Origin: Volvariella volvacea V23
Taxonomy: Eukaryota; Basidiomycota; Agaricomycetes; Agaricales; Pluteaceae
Length of the DNA: 64,000 bases
Reading direction: 5' to 3'
Assembly: GCA_000349905.1 (NCBI GenBank)
Contig: KB722736.1
Span: 781,651-845,650 of the forward strand
The notes beneath the pieces are model-generated. The model was not told the origin of the DNA, searched no databases, and saw only the letters and a program-made list of their open reading frames with translations. Numbering within the stretch: the first letter of the stretch is position 1; every line of letters starts with the position of its first letter. Of this stretch, positions 10,850-61,300 are shown in pieces. A program made the translations under genes and the position numbers.

Positions 10850-11980
10850 ATGTCGCAGAACTTTATGGTTGGAGGAGATCCCCTCTCCCTCGAGCGCATC
10901 AGGTCTGTCCTGACGCGGCTGGAAGACACCATCATCTTCAACCTCATTGAGCGGGCCCAATTCGCACACAACCCTCGGATATACCAGCGGGGTGCATTCA
11001 AGGAGCTAGTAGACCTTGGATTCACAGGAAGCTGGCTTGAGTGGTTCTTGAAGGAAACCGAGACTTTCCATGGTATGTTCATCCCGCCTCGTTTCACTCC
11101 TGTCGCATAGGCTCACGATCTCCATTCGTCAGCCAAAGCTCGTCGCTACACCAGGTTAGTATTGACTCGACTCGGGTACCGTACCATCATCAACTCACAT
11201 TTCTATACAGTCCCGACGAATACCCATTCACACAAAATCTGCCGAAGCCAGTCCTACCGCCCCTAGCATTCCCTCAGATTCTCTACCCCAACAACATCAA
11301 CGTCAACCCCTCCATCCAATCTTTCTATACCTGCGCAATCGTACCGCGTATCACAAGGAGAGCCACGCTTACCCTTGCGGCGAAAAAGCGCGCACATGGT
11401 ATCATCGGAAACGAGGAGTTCGAAGACGATGGCAATTACGGAAGCGCTGCTACCATTGACGTAGAAGTACTACAATCGATTAGCAAGCGGGTACACTATG
11501 GTATGTGCATTGACCCGCCATTTAGGGTTAGATTATCCGCTAACGGTACCTTCATAGGAAAATTCGTTTCCGAATCGAAATTCCTCGAGAACCCGGCCGC
11601 CTTTATACCCCATATACTCACGCCCGACAGACAAGCCCTAGAAAACCTAATAACAAAACCAGAAGTCGAGCGCAAACTGCTTGAACGTCTGATGAAGAAG
11701 GCAGCGACCTACGCCCAAGACTTCCAGACGCCAGAGGGGGAGAAACTAAGTCTAAGTGGCAGACTCAACAACTCCAACAAAATCGATGTCGATGGTGTCG
11801 TCGACTTGTACGAGAGTTACATTATACCACTAACAAAAGAAGTTGAGGTAAGTTTCTGCATGTCCTTTGCTTCAAATTTTGGCTCTAATCAACGCACCCC
11901 AGGTTGACTACCTCCTTCACCGTCTTGATGGCATGTCAGAAGCTGAAATTGAAAGACTACGGAACAAAACTTGTTGTTAA
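10850..11980 (+). CDS. ARO7: Chorismate mutase (AroQ, eukaryotic type)
   Basis: It converts chorismate to prephenate, the first step toward phenylalanine and tyrosine. From ATG 10850 (MSQNFMVGG) the frame gives [20 protein letters not shown], the conserved N-terminal helix with the active-site Arg. Then come [70 protein letters not shown] and [19 protein letters not shown]. It ends with RNKTCC and a TAA at 11980. Four GT-AG introns were placed: after FH, after YT, after HYG, and after TKEVE. The length of about 270 residues is normal. Yeast relatives are inhibited by tyrosine and activated by tryptophan; whether that holds here is not shown. Confidence 0.96.
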
Positions 11981-12371
11981 CTGCTTTTCACGGACATCAT
12001 TTGTACTAGGTAGGGGGTTGTTTGCCCCCTTTGGGTGTGAGGAATAGCTAGGGTATCATTCCGCTAATAATGTGTAAAATATGTAACCATAGGATGCGTG
12101 CAATCAAAACTTTGCACCAAAGCTCGGGACTCAGTCCGTTGCAGATCAAGAACAAAAACAAAACAAGAGGGAATGAGCGACAGAAACATGAGGTATGAGA
12201 GAACGTGAAACGGTATAATGCCAATGTGAATACATGATAAGCAAAACAGATGGGGCAAGGTATGCGGGTAGGAAAAACCCAGGTGGGAATGTACAAGTGA
12301 AACAAGCGTAATGTAAGTATATCACAATCCTAGATCTAGACGACGCGTCTCAATCAATAACGTTTGGTGAA
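11981..12371. other. Convergent 3' region
   Basis: The space between the ends of chorismate mutase and the first septin-like gene. It is A-rich on the + strand, and no coding region is supported. A last small exon of the septin-like gene could lie here if the stop at 12372 is bypassed by splicing. Confidence 0.35.
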
Positions 12372-14610
12372 TCACAGAAAGGACATACCTTCCAGCAGCC
12401 GTTGACGGTCGTTGTCGTTGATTTGCTGGGTCGCACGGCGAGCAAGCAACTTCTCCGTCCTGTACTTTTCATACAGCACTTCTTTGGTACGAGTTTTCAG
12501 CAACTGTGGAACAGATTAATGGGTTGATCCGCAAATATCGCCAACAATGTTCCTCACCTTGAGATGGGTCGACAGGATAGCCGTTCGCAGAGCGGCGAAA
12601 TCGCAATGAGTCGGATCAAGCACATCGACAGTGCCCCATCGGTATTTGCGAACAAATACGCCCTTCAGGTCTTCCGGTAGACCAGAGACGTTTGATGTCT
12701 TGTTGTGGATTGACGAAGGGGGTGACTGTTGATGGTTCGTTTCAACCGACACAGCATGTCCATCCTCGGACGTTGGGACCGGAGATGCTGGCGTTTGGGG
12801 ATACGCACCATCCGACGAAAGTGGTCGGTGCCTACGCTTACCGGGCTCTGGAGCGATCAAGGCAAATGGCATCAGACTAGCCAAGTCGGTTTTTGCGATG
12901 GCGTGCGCGGAAAATCGAATATTGGCGACATTGTCCTCTGCAGGGTCAGGAGACTGAGGTCGATTGTCGTTGATTGCGACTTGAGACAATTCCCGACGAG
13001 TTCGGGAGCGCGAATGCTGGCGGTTTCGACGCAGTTTGATAACAGGTCGTGACTGTCGCTCGTCCTCCTCTTCGTCCTCCTCTTCGCTTTCATCTCCGAG
13101 ATCATCAGCGCCATCAGGTGTCGCAAACTTGGTCTTGCGCTTTGCCGAGTTGGCAACAGGACTCGAGGGTGCAGGTACGTCGGGGTTTGATGGTCCAAAT
13201 ACGCCAAAATCCAAACCAGCCTCGGCCAAACCCTTCCTTACTGCGTGCTAGTGCGTGAGCCACCACTGAAGCCTTGTACAGATGGAGATGAAACGGCTCT
13301 GGTTTGAGGCCTTGACTCACCTGCGAGTTTGATTGCGTGAAGCCTTTCATCTGTCAATGAATCTGCGTACGCAATAACTGGTAATACATTTGTACGGACG
13401 GACAAGCGACGAATAACTTTGATCTCTACTGGAGACATGGTTAATGGCGTCTCGGTTTCATCATCAGAATCGTCTGCAGATGATGTGTCTGGTACAAGAT
13501 CTGGTGGATTGCGGTTGGAAATTGTGGCTTCCGAACGCGTTTTATTTGGAAATGATGAGATAGCACGCCGTGCAGCAACCGTCATGATGGACGCCGGGTC
13601 AATCATATAGATGCACCTAATCAACAGCGGAAGTAATTAGTAAACTGCATATGAGGGCTGTTGAACTTCCTCCTACAGATGTATATGCTGATCCCCCTTG
13701 CTCGTGCGAACAACTTTTGATTCCTGAATGCCGTTTCAGCGGAATGCGCAAAATGGAAAAAGGCCAGGGGGCAATCAGAGGCTAGAGCGCATCACATACC
13801 TCGCTCATAGTATCCGCATATTGAACATCAATATGCTTCATGATACTAGTTATCTGACGCTCAAGCTTAAGCTCTCGCCCTTCCTGGAATTCCAGCCCAG
13901 GGGTATCAATAACTGTGAGCAACACCCTATCAAACCGAGATTCGCATATTTCGATAGTGGCTGTCTCGATTGACTGTGTAGCCTTGGTTTGTCCACGAAG
14001 GAATCGATCGACGACAGTGCGCTGGTCCACAGGAGCGGATGGGGAAAGGTCCGCCGTTTCCAGAAGTAATCGAAGCAGCGACGTTTTCCCAGTTCCTTGA
14101 CCGCCTACAACCTAATCGTTGTTTGTCGTCATAGTTAATGAGGTAAATCAATGCACGCGTTCCAGTGAGTAAAGTTGAACACGTATTAAAGGGCATAATG
14201 AACGTCAGATGCGTGTAACAGCCACGCGAGGATCAGCGCACCATAAGATTGAATGTAGGGGCCACCCTAGTCCTCCGTTGGCTAGCGCGCTTGGTCGTTG
14301 CAGCCCCTTTCGCGTTATCCCAAGCTGAAGGGGGCGACATGTACAGGGAGGAGATGGGGCCATTGCTTGGTTTGTCTGAAGAACCTCGGAATGGCTTATG
14401 GAAAGGAATGGCGCCCCGGGCCGATTGGAAAGAAGATTTGGCTGCTCCTTGGGGAGGTGGAGGTGGCGGAGGCACGTCTTGAATTGCTGCAACATCCACC
14501 AAGTTCTCTGGCCAGGGTATGCCTTGACTCAAGAGCTCTGGGAGCGATGGGGAGTTGCGAACGCGCGTAGAATCGGGCTCTTTCTTGGTTTTGCGCCGGA
14601 AAGTGAACAT
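12372..14610 (-). CDS. Septin-like GTPase (stand-alone)
   Basis: A divergent septin family GTPase. ATG 14610 opens a disordered N-terminus with a run of seven prolines. Then comes NLMVVGGQGTGKTSLLRLLL with a complete P-loop (exon join near 14110), LLTVIDTPGLEFQ (G3), and after two introns NVLPVIAYADSLTDERL, where the septin G4 motif AKAD reads AYAD. A long acidic and basic insert follows (EEEDEEEDE, then RNRQHSRSRTRR). The septin-unique element is YRWGTVDVLDPTHCDFAALR. After an intron the last exon gives LYEKYRTEKLLARR and stops at 12372. The next gene upstream is a paralogue with matching exon structure. Whether it co-assembles with canonical septins cannot be told. Confidence 0.82.
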
Positions 14611-15114: not shown

Positions 15115-18100
15115 TTAGGGTATACCAGCTATGGCTGGAGGCGACTCCATTCTCATTTTCTTTGGGGGTCTAGAAGTATCAGGGTGCTCCGACGATCTTT
15201 TTAAGTCTATGTCACCTTCAAGGTGACCATCAATCTCGCGGGGGTCCTGAGCCTCGTTTCCTGGGGTAGTAGTGGATACAAATCGAGAGGAGGGAGGGGA
15301 AGGTGTATGAGGGGGCTCAGCAGGTACTTTAGAAGTGGAAGCGCGCCGGCTTTTCTTCTGGTTCGAACCATTGGAAGCACCAGGATCATGAACATAATTG
15401 CAAGGTAATTGCCGACGAGCACAGCTCGCACAAGCTGGGTGAGCACCATCGCATTTTGTCTTACGGGCTGAATGGGGGATAAGTAACCAGGGAGCGGGAA
15501 TAGGTTTCTTCAGTCTCACCTCGACAGAAATTACAAGCGACAACTTTGGGGCCGGAGGTTGAGCCTTGTCTAGTGCTTTTTCCAGGAACGGTGGCAGAGC
15601 GTCTACGTTGTTGAGCTTGCTGTTCAGAAGCTGGTCTGATTGGCGGAAGGGTAGGCGCCGACACTGGAACAGGAGTTGTGGGAGAAGGATCGGGTAATGA
15701 GAGTGTTGCTATGTGAGGCAGCTCGTTATCAGGGAAGAAGCGCGAAGCTTCGCTAGACGCATGATTAGGTTTCGACCTAGAAGAGGAAGGAATCGGCGGG
15801 ACTTCTTCCTGCCTCTCGCTGAGGCGTCCAAGAGGCGGAAGGGGAGGAACAAAGTTATCATGGGCGGGCTGTTCTAAGGTTGGGTCTCGGCGCGCAAGTG
15901 ACTGAGACGGTACTCGAGGGGATAGTGAGGCATCATTCGGCTCTCCTGATCCTCCTCCGCTATCACTGTCACTATCATCGCCTTTGCGCTGCTTCATACC
16001 CCCGCGCCTCTTATTCTGGGGCATGTAATCACATGGATTTGATCGTTTCAGACACTGACCACAGGCAGGTCGGCCACCATCGCATTTCAACTTCCGGGCT
16101 AGCAGTTAATTAGCCAAAAATTCAAAGGTGAGCGAGGAAGTAACCTACAGCGGCAGAAGTTGCATGCAACTGTGATTTTTTTGGGCCGCTGCTTGGCCGA
16201 CCCTGTGAGGGATTCGGTCAACACAAGTGCCTGTCTATGTTCGTCGATAGCTCCGGATGGCGACTTACTTGGAGCAGATGAGCCCCTCGAGGATAGAGAT
16301 GTCGGATCGGCAAGCGGCCGGGAAATGGATGGGGAATGGATCTCGCTTCCGCCAAGGAAATCGCGCGGTGGTGGAAGAGGCGGGTGGCGATTCAATGCGG
16401 GATGTGTCGTATCAATGACCAATGGAGGCCGTGACCCATGAGAAAGGGATGTACCCATGGGCGTCAAGCCCTGGGGTCCCCGATGGGGCAAGGGATGCCG
16501 AGAAGATGGCCTCGTCTGTTGGTATTCGGCCCTAAACTTGTCAAAGAGATATTCTCTGGTGTATTTCTGCAGGGTCTGATATAAGGGGACGGGTGATGGA
16601 CGGAAAGTTAGTGTAGCAACAACACGATTCGGGACTCAGTTCCATCAGTCAAGAAAAATATCGCATACCTCCATATGATGAAAAATTGCGGAGCGGAGGG
16701 GCATGAAATCACAATGATTCGGATCCAGAACATCCATGGAACCCCAGCGATAGCTCCGAATATATTTGCCTCGGACTATTTTCGAAGGTGAAGGTGAATG
16801 ATGCGGTACAGGCGTGTATTGTTGAACAAGGTCGTGACGAGAGAGTGGTATCCTGGGAACGCCATCACTGTGAGAGTAGATGTCTGGTGATATGAGTCCA
16901 TAAGGAAGACGCAGGAGAGAGGCCGTCACTGGCGAGGTGGGCGGTGTGATGTTGGTCGAAGGTGAACCGTTTGGATGCGCGCCATAGCCATTGGCGTGAT
17001 CTGTAGATTTAGGCGTTGGAAGGTCGTCTTGGCCATGCCGGTAGTTATCCACATCAAAAATTCCGAATCCAATGCCAGCATCTGCTAGGTTGCGGCGCAC
17101 TGCCAGCTTTACGGCCGCGAGGCGATCGTTTGATAACGAATCAGCTCGAGCAATGACTGGCAGGACATTGACACGCGCTGAAAGGCGGCGAATCGTGTTT
17201 ATCTCGGCCGCAGGGAGCATAGGTTTGAAAAGCAGGGGGTTCGTGGTCACGGGGGGTTCCAGAATCACTGGCTCCTGATCGGGCTGAGAAAAACTGCCAG
17301 CACGCGCCCTCGGCACTAAAGGCGCTGGTGGTGCGGGGACAGGAGGAGGAACAATTCTGTCGGGATCCAGGAAATATATGCACCTGATAAGTGGATGAGC
17401 GAGCGAGTCTGACGAGGGATGCATTGGGATGCACATACAGGTGCACGTATTTGTCTCCGGTGTGATTTCGCCAGTCCTGGGGTACAATTAGACTCGTCAC
17501 GGAATTTGAGACGTGGAGAGGACAGCGCTCACATCCTCCAGACCCTCTGCGAAGCGACCGTCAATATGTCGCATGGTGTCAGACAGGAGCCGTTCACTGC
17601 CTTCTGGGTCATTAAAGTCCAAAGAAGGGGTGTCAATCAATGTAAGACCGAGACTTCGATGAGGACCAGTCCCTCCCGAGCCGACATTAACATCAATCGA
17701 TGCTACTCTGATGTAGGATGTGTGCCCGCTGCATCCTTGAACAAATTTGGCGACGGAAGCAAGCTGTTCTCTTGTGGCGTTGGGAGAGATGTCGCAGGTA
17801 TCGAGCAACAGTCGGAGAAAGGACGTTTTTCCTGAAAGACCGGTGGGAGTTGTTGGGCATGGGGCGGCAGCGGGAATGAGAAGAGAAAGAACTTGCCTCC
17901 ACGGCAGCCAGCTACGAGCAGCGTGAATTCGGAACGAGCATTGTCTGCAGGAAGGGATGACGAAAGCGCGCTATGAGATGGAGGTTGGAAGGACATTTGG
18001 GAGGAGAGTGCGTTTACCGGGGATATCATGGCTGGGTCCGAGATGGGGTTTAGTAGAGTAGAGGCCTGCAGCACCCGCGGCGGCAGACCGGTCGTCGTCT

Positions 18101-18135
18101 TCGTGCTGTCTTGTCCGTTGGTCGGATGGGTTCAT
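15115..18135 (-). CDS. Septin-like GTPase fused in frame to two Zn2Cys6 clusters
   Basis: The first half is a septin-like GTPase: ATG 18135 (MNPSDQRTRQHEDDD), FTLLVAGCRGGKTSFLRLLL, LTLIDTPSLDFND, NVLPVIARADSLSNDRLAAV and YRWGSMDVLDPNHCDFMPLR. G3 has Ser for Gly (DTPS) and G4 is ARAD. The P-loop is split by a GC-AG intron (17832-17896). After the intron at 16576-16668 the frame reads TREYLFDKFRAEYQQ, like a septin C-terminus. It then continues without a stop through a Pro/Ser-rich stretch into VACNFCRSRKLKCDGGRPAC with CGQCLKRSNPCDY, a full Zn2Cys6 cluster. After a linker of about 180 residues a second cluster follows: VACNFCRARKTKCDGAHPAC with CASCARRQLPCNY. The stop is at 15115. Alternatively, two genes overlap here and the zinc protein starts at Met 16456. 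No stop codon separates them in the genomic frame. Confidence 0.7.
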
Positions 18136-18670: not shown

Positions 18671-20528
18671 CTACCGCTCCGACTGTGTTCTTGCGCTCGT
18701 GTCGTCCGTCGACTCGTCCTCCGAGCTCTGGCCCTCTGAGCTCACCTGCACCTGCCCCAGCCGCCCCGTGATCCCACCAATCACTGGGTAGTCCGGAGCT
18801 GTCTCCGGGGGCCGGAACGCGAAACTTTCTATGCTCATGACAGAAGGTTGTGGCCGAAGCTCAGGTGCAAGGTTTTGTAGGTCAAAAGACCCGCTGCTCG
18901 ATCCTGCAGGCTGATCGCCAGCTGCAGGTCGCATGCCCAGTGTCTCGGATGTCTGCCCCGTCGACGCTCCTGCCCCCGCCGTCTGGGCCTTCTTCGAGCG
19001 ACTCCCCTTGGGTGCCTTCCCAGGTCCACGACGTCTCGGCACAGGCACGTATTCGCAGCGAAGCGTCCGCTGTGTGCAGTTGAAACATGACGGCCGCGCT
19101 CCATTGCAACGAAGCTTCCGTCCTGTCAGGGGTGAGAGTAGGGATGTAAGTAAATCATTGCTCCATTAACCGCACAGGCGATGTCAAACGCCGGACTTGC
19201 CTCGACAGAAGTTGCATGCTACGGCCGTCTTTCTTGCTCCTTTCGTCTTCTTGTCTTCGTGGCTGGTGTCGGCCGTTTCGTCAGCATTTCGTGTTCGTCT
19301 CTTTCCGCGTTTCGTATCGCTGGGCTCATTACTTTCGTTGTCCGGCTGGGACTCGGGGTTCGATGGGTAATTGTCTGGTGGTAAAGATGGCTGCGGTGGC
19401 GGCGCTGGCATCCCATAAACGGATGGGAGTTCTATCAGACCTGCTGTCATCCCTCCTCCCACGCCTAATCGCGCACTACTCGAGATGGCATCTGAGGACC
19501 ATGTACGACGAGGCCCTCCAGAGGGCGGGGGGTCTAGAGGCGGATATGCTTCGTAAGGATCCTGATAAGGTGCTCCATAACCCGTCGGCAAACGGGGAGA
19601 CGGGAGTTCCTGCAGGGATCTGGAGAACTGCATGCCATACAGGTTTGGCTGACTCTCTAACAAAGAAAAGTCGTGGGTGGTTGTATAGGGGCATTACAAG
19701 TTATATTTTGTCTGCGGAAAGAGGTATCTAATCTAACGCACCTTGTATAGGGGGTTGACTTGGTGATTGCCAGTAATCTCCACCTTCCTCTCTCCCCATT
19801 AGCCTTCGGCCATAATATTCATCATACTCATTGTCAAATCTCTCTCCTCGCCCGATCCATCCCGGGTGAGTGCCCAGCCGCGCTGGCTGGCTCGATCCTC
19901 TTCGTCCTCTGGAAATACCTGACTCGCTCATCCCCCTCTGACTTGGAACCACCAGGGATGATGGACCGGCCTCGCCTTCGCCCCATGAACTACGCAGTGG
20001 AGTTGCCTCTCTTGGCGTCAGTGGCTGCAGAATGTAACCAGGCGGATCAGACGATATAGGTATTTGCATTCGCGATGCATGATAACCAGGATCGCTCAGG
20101 ACAGGATTTCCGTAGGATTGACTGGTGCCTGTAGGATCGACAATTGAAGGTCCGACAGAATGTCTGTACATTGGACGTGGCGAAGCTAGTCCTGGTCCTG
20201 CTATGCTAGTCCCGCGGCCTCGTGCGCTTTCAGGCTGTGGAGGTCTGGCTTCGTAGTCGAAATACGGGCGTGAGCGTCGCGTACTCTCGTACAAGGAGGT
20301 GGCGCTGATTGGAGGGTTTACGGGAGGAAGGGTGAGCGATGGAGAGACCGGGAGACGATAGGATGGATTTCCTGTGCTCCCTTCCGCGGTGTCAGGTCTT
20401 GAGCGCGGTGCAGGAAGCGTGGCACCCGAGACCTCATCGGATGTTGTTCGAGGGTGGTAGAGGTGAGGAATCAGGGTGCTAGGGAGCGAGCTTCCTCTGG
20501 ATGGCTGCTCCCCTTCTTGTCTCTCCAT
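18671..20528 (-). CDS. Zn2Cys6 protein with a single C-terminal-half cluster
   Basis: A putative DNA-binding regulator of about 550 residues. ATG 20528 (MERQEGEQPSRGSS) opens a long Pro/Ser/Arg-rich disordered region. An intron ending in TTTCTTTGTTAG (near 19666) joins it to ESQPNLYGMQFSRS. The zinc cluster reads VACNFCRGRKLRCNGARPSC then FNCTQRTLRCEYV and is split by a GC-AG intron (19123-19200, donor CGAG|GCAAGT). A basic patch (PRRRGPGKAPKGSRSKKA) and an acidic Ser-rich tail follow, with a stop at 18671. The intron sits at the same place, phase 1 between R and RK, as in both clusters of the neighbouring septin chimera, which suggests common descent. No fungal-specific TF middle homology domain is visible, and target genes are unknown. 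Confidence 0.8.
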
Positions 20529-24218: not shown

Positions 24219-26295
24219 TCAGCCGCCCTTGCTCTTTTTGATGGCTCGTTTTTTCTCCGCTTTAGGGATCTTGTGCTTCCGACGCTCCCTGTTCTCCGCT
24301 TTGACAGCCTTTTTCCGCTCCTTGGTGTGGAGTATCAATTTCAGCAGAAAATCGAGCGGGATCATTACAAACTCACTTTTTTGCTTTCCCGGTCCTCGTG
24401 TCTATGGCCCCGAGGTTTCCGCTCAACAAACTCCTTTTCGTTAGCGCTATCTTCCCCTTCCTCACTATTGCTCCCCTCTGATCCACTTTCGTCGCCCTCA
24501 TCACTGAGTGCAACCCCTTCAAACCGGACTTTCATGCTCTCCACGGGCGCATGAGGAACTAGTCCAATTGTGTCGGCATAAATTAATTCGCTCGTCTCCC
24601 CGGCTCTGAGTTTCTCCACATCTCTTTCGGGATCATAAACCTCATTGAGAGTTCGGGGTATGAAAGATTTCATGAAAACAGCGTCCTCGTGGCCATCAGC
24701 CGGAGGCGTCTGCACATCGCTTGATTCCGACGATTTCGTTGCCACAGGCTGGAGGACTCCGCTCTGGGTTATCTCTTCCTGGCTTGGAGAGGACTCCGGT
24801 TGTGCAGTATCCACCTGGCGTAACCACGCGTGTAGTACTGCCTCGTCGCCTTCCGTTCCTTCTGTGAAATCCGAAAGGTTATCCCTCGTGACGAACTCGA
24901 AACTCTTCCTTAGTCCCAAAGTCTTGACACCTAATCGCCCAAAGAAGTCTTCCACATTTTTAATATCATTCCGCAAGAAGTCGAATGCGGAAGGGTGATC
25001 ATGTTCTACGCTCTGGGAGACGTCAATGATCCAAAGATGGCCCTCGTGGTAGAGGATATTGTATTCGGAGAGATCGGCATGAACGAGTTTACATTGATGA
25101 AACATCTTCCGAACGTTGAGAACCAGCTCTGCGTAAAGACTAACCAGTTCAGAAGCTGCTAGTCCTGCATCCTTCAAGCGTGGGGAAGCCCTTGAAATAC
25201 GGTTAGTCCGTTATTGCCCTCACAAAGTGTCTAGAACCCTGCCAATGGACACCTACCATCCTTCCTTATCACCTAAGAACCCCATAACGAGAACGTTCTC
25301 CCGAACCTCGATGGGCTCAGGACATCGTATACCGGCAATGATCAACCTTTTCAAGTTCCGCATCTCTTTTTCTGCCCATAGCCGCACCATTTTCCGAGGA
25401 TTGTGTCGATTGTAACCCCTTCTGAAGCGATACTCTCCTGTCACGTACTTGTCCCTATCCTTAAATATGAGGATCGATGTCTTGTAAATCTTAATTGCTA
25501 AGTGCCGAGAGTCTGGCGCAAGGGCATGATATACATTGGCCTTGTCCGAGGGAGCAGTGTCAATAATTACAGCAGCGATAAAGCGACATCCAGCATATAA
25601 TCCTCACCTCCTTCCCTGTGCTCACACAACCATTGACTTCTTGGATCAGCCCTCTTCCAATCATCTTGAATAGGATCAATCGAGTCCTGGGATCGAGCAC
25701 TTGCTCACTTGTAGCGCGATCTGACTTATCCTTCATATTTGCAGATGCACTAGGCCCCTTCCGATTAACACCCACACCCATCACATAGGGTGTGTCGATC
25801 TTGGCCAGCCGTGAGGAATACTTAGATAGCGCAGCTAATTGATCGGTTGTCCGCGTCTTAGCGGGTGCACTGGGAACTACGGTCGAGCTTGTACTCTTAG
25901 GGACATTGACTGCAGGCAGGGGTGCTACCGTGGCTTTTTGGTTGATTGCAGAAATCGTTCCGGATGCAGTTCCTGTCCGTATAGCATGATGTTGCCGTAG
26001 ACGGTTATATTGTTTGGTAAAATCTGTGACGAACCTATGGTAGGTATTTGTCGACGACAACGAGGGTCTACATACCCCTTTCAGCATTTTCCCAGTCCTC
26101 ATCTTCAACCCTCGCAGTGTCATAATCTTCGTCTATATCGGATTCTTCGTCCTCTTCATCAAACTCAAGTAGGAAGGGATCGTCGTGTGTATCAATGTAT
26201 GCTTGCCCGTCCCGGAGAACTTCATTTGGGGTGGACTGTGGCACGGTTTCTGGCTCTGAGGCGTCGTCAAACTGGCCAGGAGCAATTGCAGACAT
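24219..26295 (-). CDS. RIO1: Atypical serine kinase/ATPase RIO1
   Basis: RIO1 acts in late maturation of the 40S ribosomal subunit. From ATG 26295 ([11 protein letters not shown]) there is an acidic N-terminus. The kinase core then shows [15 protein letters not shown] (nucleotide loop), [20 protein letters not shown] (catalytic Lys region), [40 protein letters not shown] (catalytic Asp and Asn) and [12 protein letters not shown] (metal Asp). The C-terminus is acidic, then strongly basic ([17 protein letters not shown]), as in yeast Rio1, and stops at 24219. Several short introns. Normal domain order and length. Confidence 0.96.
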
Positions 26296-32109: not shown

Positions 32110-33309
32110 CTACATAACAATACAATTATCCTTTTTCTCTGCCTCCAAGGCAGCGAGCTTAGCTTTATCGGCGTCGCTGAGCAACTATCAGCGAGCAGCA
32201 AATCAGCTCTACCGAAAGCCTGGAATAAACGACTATACGTACACCCTTCTTGGCCCGTTCCTGCATTGCCTTGATTTGGCTCTCCCGCTCAGCCTTTGCG
32301 CGACTACACTCACGCAGTCGCAAAAATCGAAGGAGGTTTGAAGGACAGAGGGTCAATTACAGGAGATAGTTTATTAGTGAGTGAAGGTAGTGGCGATTGG
32401 CGTTCATTATTTGATGCGATAGTAGATGTTGTGACAGGAGTAATGGATACAGATTGTTGGCCGGGTTGCAGAGGTGATAATACAGTGCGGTTATGAGATA
32501 CAGAGTGTGTTGAACTGTGATTGAATGAGTGGGTACGTGATATAGAGGGGGAGGGGCTGACATACCGGTCGGTCTTGGAGAATACATTTGTAGCTGAAGG
32601 GGATGATGGTTTGGGCTTCGAAGAAGATGCAATTGATGACGAATTCGCAGTCACAGCCGGGCGAGGCGCAGGTGTTTGTGATGAAGCGCTTGAAGTTGGA
32701 ATTGTCTTCTTCAAGGCGTCTACAGCACCTGTTGCCTTAGCATTAATAGCCTTGGCGTCAAATTTGGCCAAGAGATTGGACTGGGCGGCCTGCCTGCCAG
32801 GTGCTGCGGGTTGTGAAGTGGCAGAGGTGCAGTTATGATCGGAGGGGAAACGATGAGCAGGGCAGAATTGGCGTCTGCACTTGTCGCAGGATATTGGTGA
32901 AAATAGGACCTTCTTGCAGCTCGCCCTGGCGCAGACAGGTGATTTGGATTTAGCAGCTTTACCAGTCATGACTGTGCAATCAGTATTGAAATGCTCTTCC
33001 ATGCGATCGTTAGGGTCCTGCCCCGGACGGAATGCAACTGGGACATTGCAGAGTGGACCTGGGACGTGAAATGAGTTCGCGCCCTCGAATCTATGTGGGT
33101 CAACAATACTTGCAATTTGGTGCGACTCTGTTATGCGCATTTTCGTCATATTTGGGGCAATTGTGGGCGGCCACCTTAAAGTGCTCCTGACAGAATGAAG
33201 CATCACAATGGTAGCACTTGAATGGCAGGAAATCAACGAGTAAGCATGAGGAGTGTGCACATTGTTTGCCAATTGAAAGCAGCTGGGTATCGCGTTCTGG
33301 GGAAGACAT
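32110..33309 (-). CDS. AN1-type zinc-finger protein with C-terminal CaaX box (ZFAND2/Cuz1-like)
   Basis: A stress-related proteasome adaptor family. ATG 33309 (MSSPERDTQLLSIGKQC) begins AN1 finger 1: CAHSSCLLVDFLPFKCYHC then CQEHFKVAAHNCP. Finger 2 is CARASCKKVLFSPISCDKC then FCPAHRFPSDHNC. A long Ser/Thr/Pro-rich linker follows (about 33000 to 32330). The charged C-terminal part is CSRAKAERESQIKAMQERAK, and a last exon LLSDADKAKLAALEAEKK ends in DNCIVM with TAG at 32110. C-I-V-M fits a CaaX prenylation site, as known in animal ZFAND2B. The join between the linker and the charged region (near 32310) was not fully resolved. Divergent from the histidine phosphatase gene. Confidence 0.87.
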
Positions 33310-33513
33310 GTTGTGGTGATAAAAGAGAGAGAGAAATTGGCAAAGTCCGAGCGTATTATTGGGTATAAGTAGTCGGGTAGTAGAAAGCACTGGAATGATG
33401 ACGCGGCCGCTACCAAGGCTGTTGAGTGCAATTGCAAAGGTCAATAAGACCTCTGCTGCTGACTAAGCTTTATATTACTGCCCTGCATCATTCAGCCCGA
33501 CGCCGACGATGAC

Positions 33514-39773: not shown

Positions 39774-39956
39774 ATGCAGTCGCTTCGATGACAACAGTTC
39801 ATGAAAGACGTTAACGTAATGGACAAAGTTTACACAAGTCATTTGCGTGTGGCAACTTGTTGAGCAGAGAATGTACCAATAGTCCGCGTAGCAATAAAAA
39901 CAACACAAAGCAATGAGCAGGGGAGGAACAAATAATAATAGCAGCTGAATTGGTAT

Positions 39957-40869
39957 TTAGCGTTTCCGCTTTTTCGTGCTGCGTGTATTCGAAGCCGTGG
40001 CCCTCGTTCTTGTTGCGAGTGCACGTTTGGTTCCGCTTTTCGTTCTGTTTCGCGCTGGTTTCGGCGAGGCGGCTGACGGGGCTATGGGGCATGTTAAAGG
40101 TGACGCAAAAGCCGGGAAAGATGTCATACTCACCAGGAGAGGGTTCCCGCATTTCGACGTCTTCCTCTTCTGCATACTCTGTCCCACCATCAGTCGCAGT
40201 CACAACGCTACCCCTCGTGCCTGATGCACCCTCGTCACCACTCTCCTGCGTCAAAGCACTGCTATCGCTATCGCCGCCGACCAAGCCAGCCATGTCCAAT
40301 CTACTTTTTCCTCTCTTTCTGCCATTGCGAGTTTTGCTTGCTACTGCGGGCGACGGGGCAGGTGATGACGGAACGGATGCTGTTTCACGCATTCTGCGCG
40401 TAGATATAAGTGGCTCGAATTCTTCATAGGGCAAGCTAAATTCTTCTCGGAAAAATGGATGGCCGGATAGGTTCTCCGATGGTGAAGGCGAAGGAATAGA
40501 TGTTGGTGTTGAATTGTTATAAGAACTAGTCGGTATCTCGAAACCATCCATTTCCATATCCTGTAAAGGTAGGTGTGAGGGTTCACTGAGATGATGTGTA
40601 ACGCTTGGATATTTAATAAATATGAACCCTCTTACAATGGCATCCAGGGCCTCAAGATCGTAACAAGACCGAAGCTTCTCCCATATATCCTCAATACGAA
40701 CTAGTCGGCCTGTATCCTTCAAGATGGAGTTTTGGATGCCGAGAATGTGGAAATACTTATGCACTCCGACGGGTCTTGCGCGCATTATCGAACGAAAGAA
40801 TGATATTTCTCCCTCCACTGTGTCCAAGAACGACGCTGGGGCTATTGCGCTTTCTTGCGCGACGGTCAT
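39957..40869 (-). CDS. EAF7: NuA4 acetyltransferase subunit EAF7 (MRGBP, CT20 family)
   Basis: A subunit of the NuA4 histone acetyltransferase, part of the TINTIN module with Eaf3. ATG 40869 (MTVAQESAIAPASFLDT) is followed by EGEISFFRSIMRARPVGVHK, YFHILGIQNSILKDTGRLVR and IEDIWEKLRSCYDLEALDAI, the complete CT20 core. An intron (GTAAGAGG..TTACAG) joins DMEMDGFEIP and then FREEFSLPYEEFEPLISTRR. The C-terminus is low complexity, acidic then basic. After an intron near 40132 it ends in ATRTRATASNTRSTKKRKR, a nuclear-localisation-like tail, with a stop at 39957. The 3' end faces UFD2. Confidence 0.9.
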
Positions 40870-44063: not shown

Positions 44064-46966
<2,903 letters not shown>

Positions 46967-47441: not shown

Positions 47442-50144
47442 ATGGCGTCCAACTCACCTAACCTGACTGGGGTCCCTACTGTTCCCCAGGCCGCCCATGA
47501 CTCTCCTAGGGACGAGGTACATCCGCAAACGGCACAGAAGGGTGCCACATCTGGCGCTCGCCCACGCAGGCTTCCCCGGTCCCATCTGGAATACCAGCCA
47601 GTGGATATATTAAGCCACTGCGCGATTCTAACAACCAAGAGCGTGGCACCTCCTCGGCATCCAACCTTGGTGTTATCGAAGGCTTGCCCTTCAATCCGAG
47701 TCCTAGCCGGCCACATGGCACAGGCAATGGGCGATATAGAGCGATTCTATTTAATTGCAGCATCGCTGTCTGCGTCCCTCATGTCCGTTGAACGGTCGTT
47801 GCTGGGTAATCTCCCTAGAGAAATTGCAGAGAGCCCTGAATTCCAGTCCGCACGCTCTCCAGTTGCGTTTACAGTGAAGCAATTTGTTTCCGCAGTCAAG
47901 AAGTACGAAGAACTCAAGAGTGATGAGAGCAAACACGCGGAGTGGATGTCAATTGTGAACGACCTCTTCAGTGTTGTCAGTGCCACCCTGAACCACGCCT
48001 TCAACGTCGCTCGACGTATTAGTACTGCTGCAAAGCCATTGCCACCAACTCCCCGTGCCTCATTTATTCAAGGAACGACACAACCCTCTCAACTTTCGAC
48101 ACTAGACTCGCACAACAGCAACTGCAATCGGCAATCCAAATCAAGCATTACCACTTCAAACCCGTTCGACAACCCGGCCTATGTTGTTTATGACCCAAGA
48201 GCAAGAAACTCAGAGCAGAGCACACAAAGCGCGAAAGCGCCGACCCAGGCCACCTATAGGTCATCTATTGTCACTTCCAAGCACGGAAAGCATGCCTCCT
48301 TCATAACCCTGGTTGAGAGTCCTACCGCTGGATTCTCACAAGCCTCACTTCCATTGACTGAATCGACTCTTGCAAGCGAGTCGACCATTCGGACGAACCA
48401 CACGGGCACCGACGTCACTTATGTCCCTCGGCAGTCTGATATCTTCTTTCCGCCAGATCCACTGCACCCAGATATTGACGTGACTATGCCACTTCCAACG
48501 GAACTCTTGACTGTCCGAAAAGACGTCACTGGTCGGACCAGAGCAGCCTCTTTGCCCGCCCTTGTCCGTCTGCTAACATCCAAGGAGGCAATACATGACC
48601 CGGAGCTCACTACGACGTTCTTTCTATGCTTCAGGTTGTTCTGTACACCGTCACAGCTCGTACGAGAGCTTATGGCGCTATATCACGAGCAACCTCCTTC
48701 CTCCTTGGATGATGCTCAACGGCGAGTATTCAAGCGCGAACTCTCAAGTCTCCGATTCCGGGTCGCAAAGGTCTTGATCACCTGGCTGGAGCAGTACTGG
48801 CGTCCATCGCACGATGCCGAAGCTCTAAGGACAATCCAAACCTTCATCGAAAGCCGAGAGGATGGTGAATTACCACAATCTCTCACCAGTCGAATGAATA
48901 CAGCCTTACTTGTGATTGAATCCTGCTCGAAATCTGGTCGTTCAATTAGGAGGGTGAAATGCATCGAAAGACAGCTCAAGCCACCACTCCCTCCACCTCC
49001 AGATCCCACCCCCTTCACTTTGGATCCTAGGGCTTCAAATCACCCCCACGGCGTCCTCATATTCAACACAGACAGCGGCATCGAAGAGCTCGCTAGACAG
49101 TTGACTATATATGCTCACGAATTATTCATCAAGATCGACCCCGAGGATGCAGTTATGGAGTGGCGGAAAGCACAGCAACTGCCTGTCGTGCAGGACATCC
49201 AGCGCTTACAGGAATTTGAACGCGCGATGACGTTATGGGTTATTGATACCATCGTGCGGCACGACCAAGTAGGTCAGCGTGCGGAGCAGTTGGGGTTTTG
49301 GGTATCACTAGCTACAGTATGCATACTCTTCCGCTCTTCTTCTGACACGCTGGGGACAGCAGGGTTAACTGACGTCAATCCTACAGAGATGTTGTGCACA
49401 CCGCAATTTCTGTGCAGCGTTTTCCATCTATTGTGGAATAGAAACAACTGCAATACGTCGACTGAAGCAGACGCATACGGTGAGCCTCCTATATCATCCC
49501 CCCAGAATACCATTAAACAAGCCCTCAGGTTCTGCGAAAGCAATTTCAGCCCTCGTACTTGAAACTAGGGGAAACATTCTCCTACGCGCGCAATTGGGTG
49601 AACTACCGTGCACTTCTCGCGCAGACGCCGCACTTGCCGACTGTACCCCTACTGGGTAAGTCTAATTCCATTTGTAGCATCGCATCGATCGCTTAAGGGT
49701 ATCATTGATATAGTTTGCTTCAAACGCGACATCGTAACTTCTGATGAGACCGTCCCAGCAACTGTACACGCTCTACAGCAGCAGGAGGATAACATCGAGC
49801 TTGTCAATTTGAGAGCTTATGAAATCGTCGCAAAAACGATAGAAAGTAAGTTCTTCATTGCGTTGATTATTTGCCCACATCCCAATTGGAATGTATATAG
49901 CCATGGAAGCGTGCCTTTTGCCATACCAATATAGCAAGAGGGACAATATTTGTTCGTGGATCAGAAAAGCTCTGACTTTCTATAATCTATCCGACGAACG
50001 AAGAGTTCTCGATGGCTTCTTGGAAAGAAGGTAAGTAGGTTTTGTCGTCTCCAATTGATGACAAGTCTCAAAGTATTCCATGAAGCTATCATGTGGAGCC
50101 CAGGGGCATGGATGTCCCAGAACCAGGATGGATGCAGAAGTTAA
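47442..50144 (+). CDS. Ras guanine nucleotide exchange factor (CDC25 family)
   Basis: Activates a Ras-type GTPase by exchanging GDP for GTP. ATG 47442 (MASNSPNLTGVPTVPQ) starts a helical and disordered N-terminal part. The RasGEF N-terminal (REM) domain reads AASLPALVRLLTSKEAIHDP, TTFFLCFRLFCTPSQLVREL and RVAKVLITWLEQYW. The catalytic domain begins GIEELARQLTIYAHELFIKI and continues MTLWVIDTIVRHDQVGQRAE. An intron (49317-49386) joins RCCAHRNFCAAFSIYCGIET and TAIRRLKQTH, the conserved core. Later exons carry SYARNWVNYRALLAQTPHLP, VPLL, VCFKRDIVTSDE, IELVNLRAYEIVAKTIE and WIRKALTFYNLSDERR. The 3' end near 50144 is less certain. No SH3 domain is seen, unlike yeast Cdc25. Confidence 0.9.
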
Positions 50145-58351: not shown

Positions 58352-61300
58352 ATGGGGGACCTACAAACGAGGCCGTTTTCTAGGGATTATAGGTCTGTTT
58401 GCTCTATCGCTCTCGGCAGACCCGCTGATTGACTTACATGCAGCGGGCTCGTCAATCAGACGGTCATTGGGCTCAGTATAACATTACTATGCGTAACGGG
58501 TCAAGAATTGATGAAAAGAAAGAGACGCGGACAGCCAAAAGACGATTCGACGGAGCTAGGTAGCAGGGAGTCATGGGAGTTCGGGTAGTGAGTTCGTTTC
58601 TATCCTACGGTTGAGCACTTTGCATTTATCGCACACGACGGAATCAGCTTGTACAATGGGAGGTCGTGGGCTAGGTAGCATTTCACAGCGCATATATATG
58701 CCCATTTGGCTGACATCTCGATAGACACCCTACTGCGCCAGTCACGAATGGTTGGCCATTATCATGGATCTGGGGAGTGATTAAGTTACCAGAAGCGGAG
58801 ATGAATAAACTGAGAGGTATTGATGCTACATTATACGTACGCTTTTTGCGAGGAGCTTGTGAGTGAAAATCCTCTCGACGTATTCGCAAGGCTGACAGCC
58901 TCCACGCAGTCTGGTTCACTTTGCTTCACACCTTGACGACATTCCCTATTTTATTCCCTATACATGTGAAGTTTTCCGACGATGAAATATCCCCAAAATC
59001 CATGACTCGTGCCTCCATATCCTCCCTCGTGAATACCGATACTGGACGCTCTCTACTATGGGTCCATATTTGTATTCTGTTCTGGGTCACTATTTCGTGG
59101 ATCTTGACACTCTGCTGGATCTGCCATGGAGCCTTCAGGATGCGGCAGGATAGCCTCCAGGCAATAATAGCTCGGGTCGAAGCCAGTGAAAAGGACACAA
59201 ATTACTACCCCCACCCCCACCCCCAACATAGCTTCACAGAGACACCCTTACCCAAACATATCGACTTAAAAGATGGCCTACGACTTCGTACTGTAATGGT
59301 TTCCAACGTACCCTCCTCACTTAGAGACGAGAAGGAGCTCAAGGAATACTTCGAGTATTATATGTCCCGCAAATTGGAGAAGCCTTCAATGGGATTGACA
59401 TCGTCTACGCAACCAGGTTTTTTAAACAAAACCTTTGCCTTTATCTTCAATCGCGCGAAAAGGATTCCCGATCACCTTCCTCCTATCCTGCCAGTTCACT
59501 TCAATGATGACCCCACCTATCCGCCTACCGCCAAGGGCCACGAAGACACCCAAAGCACCCCCGTCATCGAGCGAGTGGTTATTGCTCGCAAGATGACAGA
59601 GTTAGCCTCGCTGCTTGAAAGACGGGAGGAAATCCTTTGTCTATTGGAGACTGCTCATATTAAGCTCGCCAACAAGGCGCTAACCGCAGTCAAGGTGCAC
59701 ATGGAGCGGCAGCGGGAAAATGGCTCAGGGGTCCGAAAGTCGTCTGCGGGGGATGAAACCGGTGATCTTGAGGAGGAAGAGCGGATGCGCACGTTAATTT
59801 CAGCACTTGGTCCGTTTGTGGAGGATTTCAAGGTGAAATTGCCTTCAAGTGTGGGCTTGAGGCGCATCATTACTGGGCCCTTAACACAAGCATTTACCAA
59901 AGGATGCATACACCTTGGAGGCAGAGGCCGGGGAAGGTCCTTGCACGAGGGTCAGAAGGCGAAATCTTACTATGTCCCACCCATTTCTAGCCTTTCACCG
60001 ACAGATACCACGATATGGGACGCCTTACTCAGTCTTCCTCGGCATTACCTTGATCCATATCAACCATTAGTAAACCTGAACCATCTCTTCCGTGGCCAAA
60101 CTGTGCCTTCTATTGATTATTATACCACTAAACTCAATCTGCTGTCCTCGCTCATTACGGAAAATCGTGCCAAATCCGCGACCGATTTTGATCCAGTCTC
60201 CACGGCATTTGTGACATTTGCTGATCCAAACGATGCCAGGCGTGCGTGCAAGTACCTTGCTGTGCACCCCGATAATCCATTGCTTTGCCTTGTGACCATG
60301 GCTCCAATGTATCATGACCTTGATTGGCTCCGAGTAATGAAGTCATCCTTTCGAGTTGAGGTACGTGCTCGAAGTCTCTCTTGGCTCCCACACTAAATTT
60401 CTATCAGTTTGTCAAGGATTGGGTCGTTAACGTTGGCGTCTGGTGAGTCAGACTACCAACGCCGAGGGTCCACTAAACAGGTTTTGCAGGGCGTTCACAC
60501 TATTTTGGTTATTCCCGGTTTCCTTTCTTGTTGGTCTGGTCTCAATCCGAAATATTTCGCTGTTTTGGCCTAGTCTGGTTCGTAAGGCGTTTGAGGATTA
60601 TTCATATTCTAATGCACCACCACTAGAAACGGTACCTCGATAAGCACGAATGGGAGTCAGAAGTAATTCAATCATTCATACCCACCGTTCTTGTTGCTTT
60701 GCTCGCCCTTCTCATCCCTCTAATCTTGCTACTCATTGCCAAAAAAGCTCACACAATTACGACACTATCAGCTCTTCACGACAGAATAATGACGCGCTAT
60801 TATAAGTTTCTCATTGTCAACGTCCTCGTATTCTTCTGCGTTGGGGTCGCCGTGCTTCAGTCTTTCCTCCTGTCTATCCGCTCTACCGCCACGACCCGAC
60901 CTGATATTATTCAGGTAGTTGCAGACAGTTTCCCCACAGCCGGTCCTTTCTACGTTGGTTGGCGTAAGTAGAATGTCTCACCTCATTCTGACGAGCGCCT
61001 TAAAAATGCATTCAGTTATATTCACAACAGCCATGCATAATGGCTTTGAAATTGCATTGAGTACGTTAAACTATCAGTTTGACTGCGCAGCCTGTTCATA
61101 ATTTTTTTTCCCAGTCGGCGTAAGCACCCTGCAAAATTTCTCACAACCTTCTGAACTTCATGGGCGTCTTAGCTTCCATTAATTGTATACCCAAGCACAA
61201 AGCGTCAGGTGACGCCGTAAGTAAAATTCCCTGCTTATGGTGGTTATTCTGACACATTTATAGGCGCAAGCGTACTGTCGGGATTCGACCAAGGACTTTC

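What the first reader, a model, noticed from the sequence alone, without database searches (positions are those of the whole stretch)
15115..18135. Septin-like GTPase continuous in frame with two Zn2Cys6 DNA-binding clusters
Seen: the exon after the septin-unique element reads TREYLFDKFRAEYQQ, the septin C-terminal helix, and stays open without a stop into CNFCRSRKLKCDG and later a second CNFCRARKTKCDG cluster. Known: septins are cytoskeletal GTPases and Zn2Cys6 clusters bind DNA in fungal regulators, and I know of no described protein joining them. Inference: if one protein is made, it could link cell cortex or septum state to transcription, perhaps by release of the C-terminal part. The alternative is two overlapping genes with the zinc protein starting at Met 16456.
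Basis: partly seen in the sequence, partly recalled or inferred. Interest (0 to 1): 0.88.

Follow-up and report, generated by a model that had tools for sequence, protein, structure and literature searches.

The report
Septin fused to DNA-binding zinc clusters
A mushroom gene encodes one protein that joins a cytoskeleton-type septin GTPase to two DNA-binding zinc clusters; over a hundred related fungal proteins show the same fusion, so it looks real and is probably a gene regulator built from a septin, though no experimental test of it was found.

Summary
Confirmed and conserved. On the minus strand, 18135-15115, nine exons encode 836 aa: a septin-type G domain (about 45-430), a linker predicted disordered, and two Zn2Cys6 clusters. 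The window is Volvariella volvacea; the public entry P0001 is identical except for one missing 16-aa exon. All 120 listed homologues of 200 hits carry both domains. The tandem neighbour, an unfused paralogue named Cc.AspE in Coprinopsis, is the control: 0 of 120 listed homologues of 442 hits carry the zinc cluster. The alternative start Met 16456 is poorly conserved (18 of 113 rows). Against the paralogue, the fused septin lacks the basic stretch before the G domain (0 of 61 measurable versus 95 of 95), has DTPS for DTPG and an NLS-like tail (117 of 120 versus 2 of 120). Most likely a nuclear DNA-binding regulator with a Group-5-type septin as its regulatory or dimerising part. One paper mentions one such protein, PoZCP55. 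No transcript, localisation or DNA-binding data were available.

The parts
15115..18135 (-). gene B, septin-Zn2Cys6 fusion, coding span (exons 18135-18018, 17944-17897, 17831-17533, 17476-17439, 17383-16669, 16575-16269, 16202-16149, 16098-15520, 15467-15115), 836 aa
   Evidence: model; public V. volvacea entry P0001 identical except that exon 2 is absent from it
16504..17930 (-). septin-type G domain with inserts (residues about 45-430)
   Evidence: Pfam Septin, model and fold match of homologue P0004
17897..17944 (-). 48-nt exon 2 with strand beta1 and the first half of the P-loop; ends at a GC donor; absent from public entry P0001
17623..17634 (-). G3 motif DTPS (glycine of DxxG replaced)
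   Evidence: DTPS in 107 of 110 B-type in which the pattern was found (120 searched); DTPG in 104 of 110 found A-type (120 searched)
16171..16503 (-). linker between septin helix and Zn1 (interrupted by intron 16268-16203), with conserved RPxLxID motif; contains Met 16456
16007..16170 (-). first Zn2Cys6 cluster, split by intron 16148-16099
15400..15535 (-). second Zn2Cys6 cluster, split by intron 15519-15468
15151..15162 (-). C-terminal NLS-like basic motif KKMR
   Evidence: basic motif in the last 60 residues of 117 of 120 B-type and 2 of 120 A-type
12322..14610 (-). gene A, unfused tandem septin paralogue (Cc.AspE type), 611 aa; three intron positions and phases shared with gene B
18671..20528 (-). 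gene C, single-cluster Zn2Cys6 protein (564 aa) upstream of gene B, intron at the same place in the cluster

Best explanation
Gene B makes one protein that joins a septin G domain to two Zn2Cys6 clusters. Shown by sequence: the open fused frame, its recurrence in homologues, a predicted septin fold, intact zinc-cluster residues, absence of the basic stretch before the G domain, replacement of the G3 glycine, and a C-terminal basic motif. Inferred: it arose in an ancestor of these Agaricomycetes when one copy of a tandemly duplicated Group-5 (AspE-type) septin gained the zinc clusters; the protein is nuclear; the septin domain holds guanine nucleotide without normal cycling and serves as the dimerising or regulatory module in place of the usual fungal transcription-factor middle domain; the paired clusters bind CGG-type sites and regulate hyphal or fruiting development.
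Against: No transcript, peptide, localisation, nucleotide-binding or DNA-binding data. The homologues are gene predictions, which cannot contain stops, and their DNA was not inspected. A. nidulans AspE is cortical (PMC3963935), and low conservation of the basic region is reported for Group 5 as a whole (PMC6323724). P-loop and G4 remain in part, so cycling is not ruled out; 42 of 120 B-type models show no P-loop by the pattern used. In the septin-half search, 8 of 9 NCBI-named entries listed lack a zinc cluster in their models (P0121-P0124, P0137, P0143, P0162, P0237).
Confidence: 0.57

Rival explanations
1. Cortex-tethered regulator: the septin part docks on septin structures at the cortex or septum and the zinc part is released, by proteolysis or disassembly, to act in the nucleus.
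For: AspE, a Group 5 septin, is cortical in A. nidulans and depends on core septins for it (PMC3963935 passages); the linker is long and of low predicted confidence.
Against: Basic stretch before the G domain present in 0 of 61 measurable B-type and 95 of 95 measurable A-type; the linker is weakly conserved apart from one short motif. Protease sites and membrane segments were not looked for.
Confidence: 0.13
2. One locus, two products: intron retention or alternative polyadenylation also makes a septin-only protein beside the fusion.
For: Retention of intron 5 or 7 gives stops after residue 413 or 542; Taiwanofungus locus AcW2_007443 has both a fused model (P0112) and a septin-only model (P0121), and P0162 of Panus rudis ends where intron 5 lies.
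Against: These are gene models; no expression data were seen, and the odd tails look like retained introns.
Confidence: 0.15
3. The zinc clusters do not regulate genes but act in protein assembly or chromatin structure, as in Cep3 of the kinetochore CBF3 complex or RSC30.
For: Cep3 and RSC30 are among the solved Zn2Cys6 relatives listed; no Fungal_trans domain in 44 of 44 rescanned.
Against: Weaker matches than GAL4, HAP1 and PUT3; basic residues of both clusters conserved; lack of Fungal_trans is common, 43 of 66 P. ostreatus zinc-cluster proteins have it (PMC7295025).
Confidence: 0.1
4. Two overlapping genes merged by annotation, with the zinc protein starting at Met 16456.
For: Gene predictors do merge neighbours at this locus in a few species (P0012, P0021, P0079 with a gene-C type; P0002, P0008 with gene A). 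Tricholoma furcatifolium has a septin-only model H0H92_006524, and gene A is H0H92_006526, which leaves a number free for a separate zinc model; this was not resolved.
Against: Met in 18 of 113 rows; in the window itself the septin exon has no stop before the zinc clusters; the adjacent septin A is merged with a zinc cluster in 0 of 120 listed.
Confidence: 0.05

Closest known systems
Group 5 septins (AspE of Aspergillus nidulans; Cc.AspE, CC1G_04978, of Coprinopsis cinerea)
   Same: Septin fold and Pfam match; gene B groups with gene A, whose Coprinopsis homologue P0330 is CC1G_04978, called Cc.AspE in PMC4624876; three shared intron positions and phases.
   Different: Gene B carries two Zn2Cys6 clusters and a basic tail and lacks the basic stretch and the G3 glycine that gene A keeps. 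AspE itself is cortical (PMC3963935 passages).
PoZCP55 of Pleurotus ostreatus (Hou et al. 2020, PMC7295025)
   Same: Described there as a zinc-cluster protein with three PF00735 domains and two C-terminal zinc clusters, in a separate clade (passages); probably an orthologue.
   Different: The passages found give its domains, its place in the tree and its C-terminal cluster position; they do not mention conservation in other species, AspE or a tandem paralogue. Its sequence was not fetched here.
Zn2Cys6 regulators of GAL4, HAP1 and PUT3 type
   Same: Six-cysteine pattern and basic residues between cysteines 2 and 3.
   Different: Two clusters in one chain, starts a median 189 residues apart in 103 two-cluster proteins, C-terminal, no Fungal_trans domain found; a septin domain instead.

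Membership tests
Septin (PF00735), broad sense | Match to the septin G-domain profile above the curated cut-off | tested here: met
   95.8 bits against cut-off 26.2; 44 of 44 rescanned homologues match at E 0.01
Septin (PF00735), broad sense | Septin fold with C-terminal helix after the septin-unique element | tested here: met
Septin (PF00735), broad sense | D, R, W and H conserved across septin groups including Group 5 (PMC6323724, passages); placement on this alignment is mine | tested here: met
   68-row alignment: D 68, R 68, W 67, H 62 (Q in the other 6)
Core septins, Groups 1-4 | G3 motif DTPG (recalled as typical; seen in the five other septins of this genome) | tested here: not met
   DTPS in 107 of 110 found of 120; S in 65 of 68 aligned rows
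Core septins, Groups 1-4 | Polybasic stretch (PB1) before the G domain | tested here: not met
   0 of 61 measurable with net charge +3 or more; of 120, 42 had no P-loop match and 17 too little upstream sequence
Group 5 (AspE-type) septins | Clusters with AspE orthologues | tested here: inconclusive
   A+B clade support 100 apart from five other septins of this genome; Cc.AspE is in the tree as A_P0330, but no Aspergillus AspE was available
Septins | Assembly into heteropolymers | not testable with these tools
   needs biochemistry
Zn2Cys6 DNA-binding proteins | C-x2-C-x6-C-x5-12-C-x2-C-x6-8-C | tested here: met
   two clusters in gene B; among 120 homologues 103 have two by pattern, 14 one, 3 three
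Zn2Cys6 DNA-binding proteins | Basic residues between cysteines 2 and 3, which contact CGG in GAL4 (recalled) | tested here: met
   RSRK in 113 of 113 Zn1 matches, RARK in 115 of 115 Zn2 matches, of 120 proteins
Zn2Cys6 DNA-binding proteins | Sequence-specific DNA binding | not testable with these tools
   needs EMSA, DAP-seq or ChIP-seq

The most novel reading that the evidence does not exclude
A septin has been turned into a transcription factor: in mushroom-forming fungi a duplicated Group 5 septin left the membrane, lost its G3 glycine, and now serves as the nucleotide-loaded dimerisation or signal-sensing module of a two-cluster DNA-binding regulator, possibly the first septin known to bind DNA itself.
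Probability: 0.4. Interest if true: 0.87.

Novelty: new variant of a known kind. Interest (0 to 1): 0.72.

Why it matters
Septins are studied as membrane-associated cytoskeleton. A septin domain kept across several fungal orders inside a protein with two DNA-binding clusters would show that the septin fold can work in gene regulation. It also offers a natural comparison: an unfused paralogue sits next door and keeps the basic stretch and the usual G3 motif. Group 5 septins are the least conserved of the fungal groups, and a genetically tractable mushroom such as Coprinopsis cinerea could test directly what this domain does.

Tried and rejected
Two separate genes: judged unlikely because Met 16456 is poorly conserved and the window frame is open. 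Annotation merging: tested against the A-type paralogue, 0 of 120 listed with PF00172; merging does occur in P0002, P0008, P0012, P0021 and P0079. A pre-fusion lineage with separate halves: sought with the septin half (297 hits, 120 listed, 93 of them 400 aa or shorter; many from metagenome gene calls). Of 120 listed, 119 carry PF00735 alone and one (P0231) both. 23 reach past the last septin exon junction and 3 show the start of a zinc cluster. Nine listed entries bear NCBI names: P0231 is fused; P0121-P0124 end in the linker, P0162 at the site of intron 5, and P0137, P0143, P0237 inside the G domain. I read these as truncated or alternative models, which is not proven. Lists are capped at 120 of 200, 297 and 442 hits, so lineages outside the orders named were not surveyed. 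The zinc half was not searched alone in the protein database. Shared intron position in the clusters as proof that Zn1, Zn2 and gene C are duplicates: not accepted, because locus L017 seems to share it. Rfam found nothing in the window. No paper on the V. volvacea 'zinc finger transcription factor' entry was recognised among nine listed. In one search the P-loop pattern for B was wrong; one search replaces it. The G1 count (89 of 120) includes some false-looking matches and is not used.

Papers: PMC7295025 (passages, outline, section 14); PMC4624876, PMC4035324, PMC12194055, PMC6323724, PMC11238149, PMC8801916, PMC3963935 (passages only). Literature searches behind the statement that little is in print: (open-licence PMC papers only).

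Full report
The gene. The finding lies on the minus strand. Splice sites placed by eye and checked by script give nine exons and an 836-aa frame from Met 18135 to the stop at 15115. Seven introns are GT-AG and one, inside the P-loop, is GC-AG. Pfam sees Septin (95.8 bits, cut-off 26.2) and two Zn_clus stretches (68.3 bits, cut-off 21) and no other family up to E 0.1. Keeping the 66-nt intron 16268-16203 would also stay open (858 aa). The public entry P0001 from V. volvacea, named 'Zinc finger transcription factor', has the spliced form. It is identical to the model except that it lacks exon 2, 16 residues that hold strand beta1 and half of the P-loop. No contig is listed for it, which fits a single-gene deposit but does not prove a cDNA.

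Which organism. The 98% match of gene B and the 99% match of gene A to V. volvacea WC 439 place the window in Volvariella volvacea, Agaricales, or something extremely close.

Is the fusion real? A search with the whole protein scored 7985 candidates, found 200 at E up to 0.001 and listed 120; all 120 listed carry both PF00735 and PF00172, the V. volvacea entry included. Named members come from Agaricales, Boletales, Atheliales, Jaapiales, Russulales and Polyporales (orders looked up for one species each); some listed entries are unnamed metagenome proteins. By pattern, 103 of 120 have two clusters, 14 one and 3 three; the three-cluster cases P0012, P0021 and P0079 are models merged with a gene-C-type neighbour. 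A rescan of 44 of the 120 found Septin and Zn_clus in 44 of 44 and no other family at E 0.01. The linker between septin helix and Zn1 could be measured in 112 of 120: 64-176 residues, median 101. Conservation is highest in the G domain and the clusters; the linker holds a motif RPxLxID/E in 110 of 120 proteins. A limit: these are predicted proteins, and their DNA was not inspected.

The control. The gene directly downstream (A, 14610-12322, 611 aa) is an unfused septin paralogue. Three intron positions and phases are shared with B: after LED in B and MSE in A (phase 0), inside the Leu of VHL and IHL (phase 2), and after HHME and THLK (phase 0). A search with A found 442 hits and listed 120: all 120 have PF00735 and none PF00172. 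61 contig lengths occur in both hit lists (118 B and 119 A entries typed), which I take as A and B lying on one contig. Several pairs have neighbouring locus numbers (D9615_002864 and 002863, H0H81_008890 and 008889); one pair, AX15_002669 and 002657, is twelve apart. So the A-B tandem is widespread, and automatic merging does not make septin-zinc fusions of A.

Results on the other side. A search with the septin half found 297 hits and listed 120, of which 119 show PF00735 alone and one, P0231, both. 93 of the 120 are 400 aa or shorter and only 23 reach past the last septin exon junction. Eight of the nine NCBI-named entries lack the zinc clusters: P0121-P0124 end in the linker, P0162 at the site of intron 5, P0137, P0143 and P0237 inside the G domain. 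P0121 carries the same locus tag as the fused P0112. I read them as truncated or alternative models, but a septin-only product is not excluded.

Where the septin comes from. In a tree of 258 columns with twelve A-type, twelve B-type, the two window genes and five other septins of this genome, A and B together are separated from the five with support 100, and B is a clade with support 100. In the printed unrooted tree B attaches within A, with weak supports of 35-63, so the order of their split is not settled. The A-type of Coprinopsis, P0330, is CC1G_04978, which PMC4624876 calls the septin Cc.AspE (passage). [quoted passage not shown] No Aspergillus sequence was available, so the Group 5 placement rests on that name.

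What differs in the fused copy. G3 is DTPS in 107 of 110 B-type in which the pattern was found, against DTPG in 104 of 110 found A-type, 120 searched each. The Gly of DxxG senses the gamma phosphate in GTPases (recalled), so B may bind without normal cycling. G4 ends in Asp in all 119 matches. The 15 residues before beta1 have median net charge -1 in B (0 of 61 at +3 or more; 42 had no P-loop match, 17 too little sequence) and +4 in A (95 of 95; 25 no match). A basic NLS-like motif lies in the last 60 residues of 117 of 120 B-type (shuffled mean 11.4) and 2 of 120 A-type (shuffled mean 33.3). A motif EPVILEPP inside the G domain occurs in 98 of 120 B-type and 0 of 120 A-type; in the model this insert is of low confidence, so it may be a docking peptide (inference).

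Mechanism. The differences point the same way: away from the membrane and toward the nucleus and DNA. I therefore favour a nuclear regulator in which the septin domain replaces the usual regulatory middle domain, gives dimerisation or senses a partner, and two clusters bind one composite site. This is inference; only the sequence differences are shown.

What is in print. Hou et al. 2020 note that one of 66 P. ostreatus zinc-cluster proteins, PoZCP55, has septin domains and two C-terminal clusters and forms a separate clade. In their expression section only PoZCP14 is reported as not expressed (section read), which suggests that PoZCP55 is expressed. In three septin evolution papers the word zinc occurs 0 times in the main text (PMC6323724, PMC11238149, PMC8801916). 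Ten literature searches over open-licence papers showed no further account that I recognised. So the architecture is recorded but, as far as I could see, not studied.

Noticed in passing
window 17944-17897: The 48-nt exon with half the P-loop ends at a GC donor and is missing in the public V. volvacea protein; if skipping is real it could make a form unable to bind nucleotide.
   Followed up: partly
window 20528-18671: A separate Zn2Cys6 gene (C, 564 aa) just upstream has the same CNFCR cluster start and the same intron position; C-type sequence is merged to B in three other species' models (P0012, P0021, P0079), so the C-B-A order may be conserved.
   Followed up: partly
window 11041-11907 (+): ORF with a marginal chorismate mutase match (26.8 bits, cut-off 27) converges on the 3' end of gene A; PMC4624876 reports 3'-biased antisense RNA at Cc.AspE in C. 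cinerea, expressed before stipe elongation (passages).
   Followed up: no
P0140 (JGI metagenome protein): Divergent member in which a CNFCRG cluster start follows the septin helix after a much shorter linker.
   Followed up: no
gene B, residues about 180-222 and the Zn1-Zn2 spacer: Two short motifs seen in the fused but not the unfused family, EPVILEPP (98 of 120 against 0 of 120) and ELPHIATL-like (88 of 120 against 0 of 120), look like docking or activation peptides.
   Followed up: partly
window 24365-25177 (-), 32310-33437 (-), 39811-40869 (-), 45020-46468 (-), 47442-49562 (+), 58921-60396 (+): Ordinary neighbours by Pfam on unspliced ORFs: RIO domain, AN1 zinc finger, Eaf7, WW domains, RasGEF, PHM7_cyt.
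   Followed up: no
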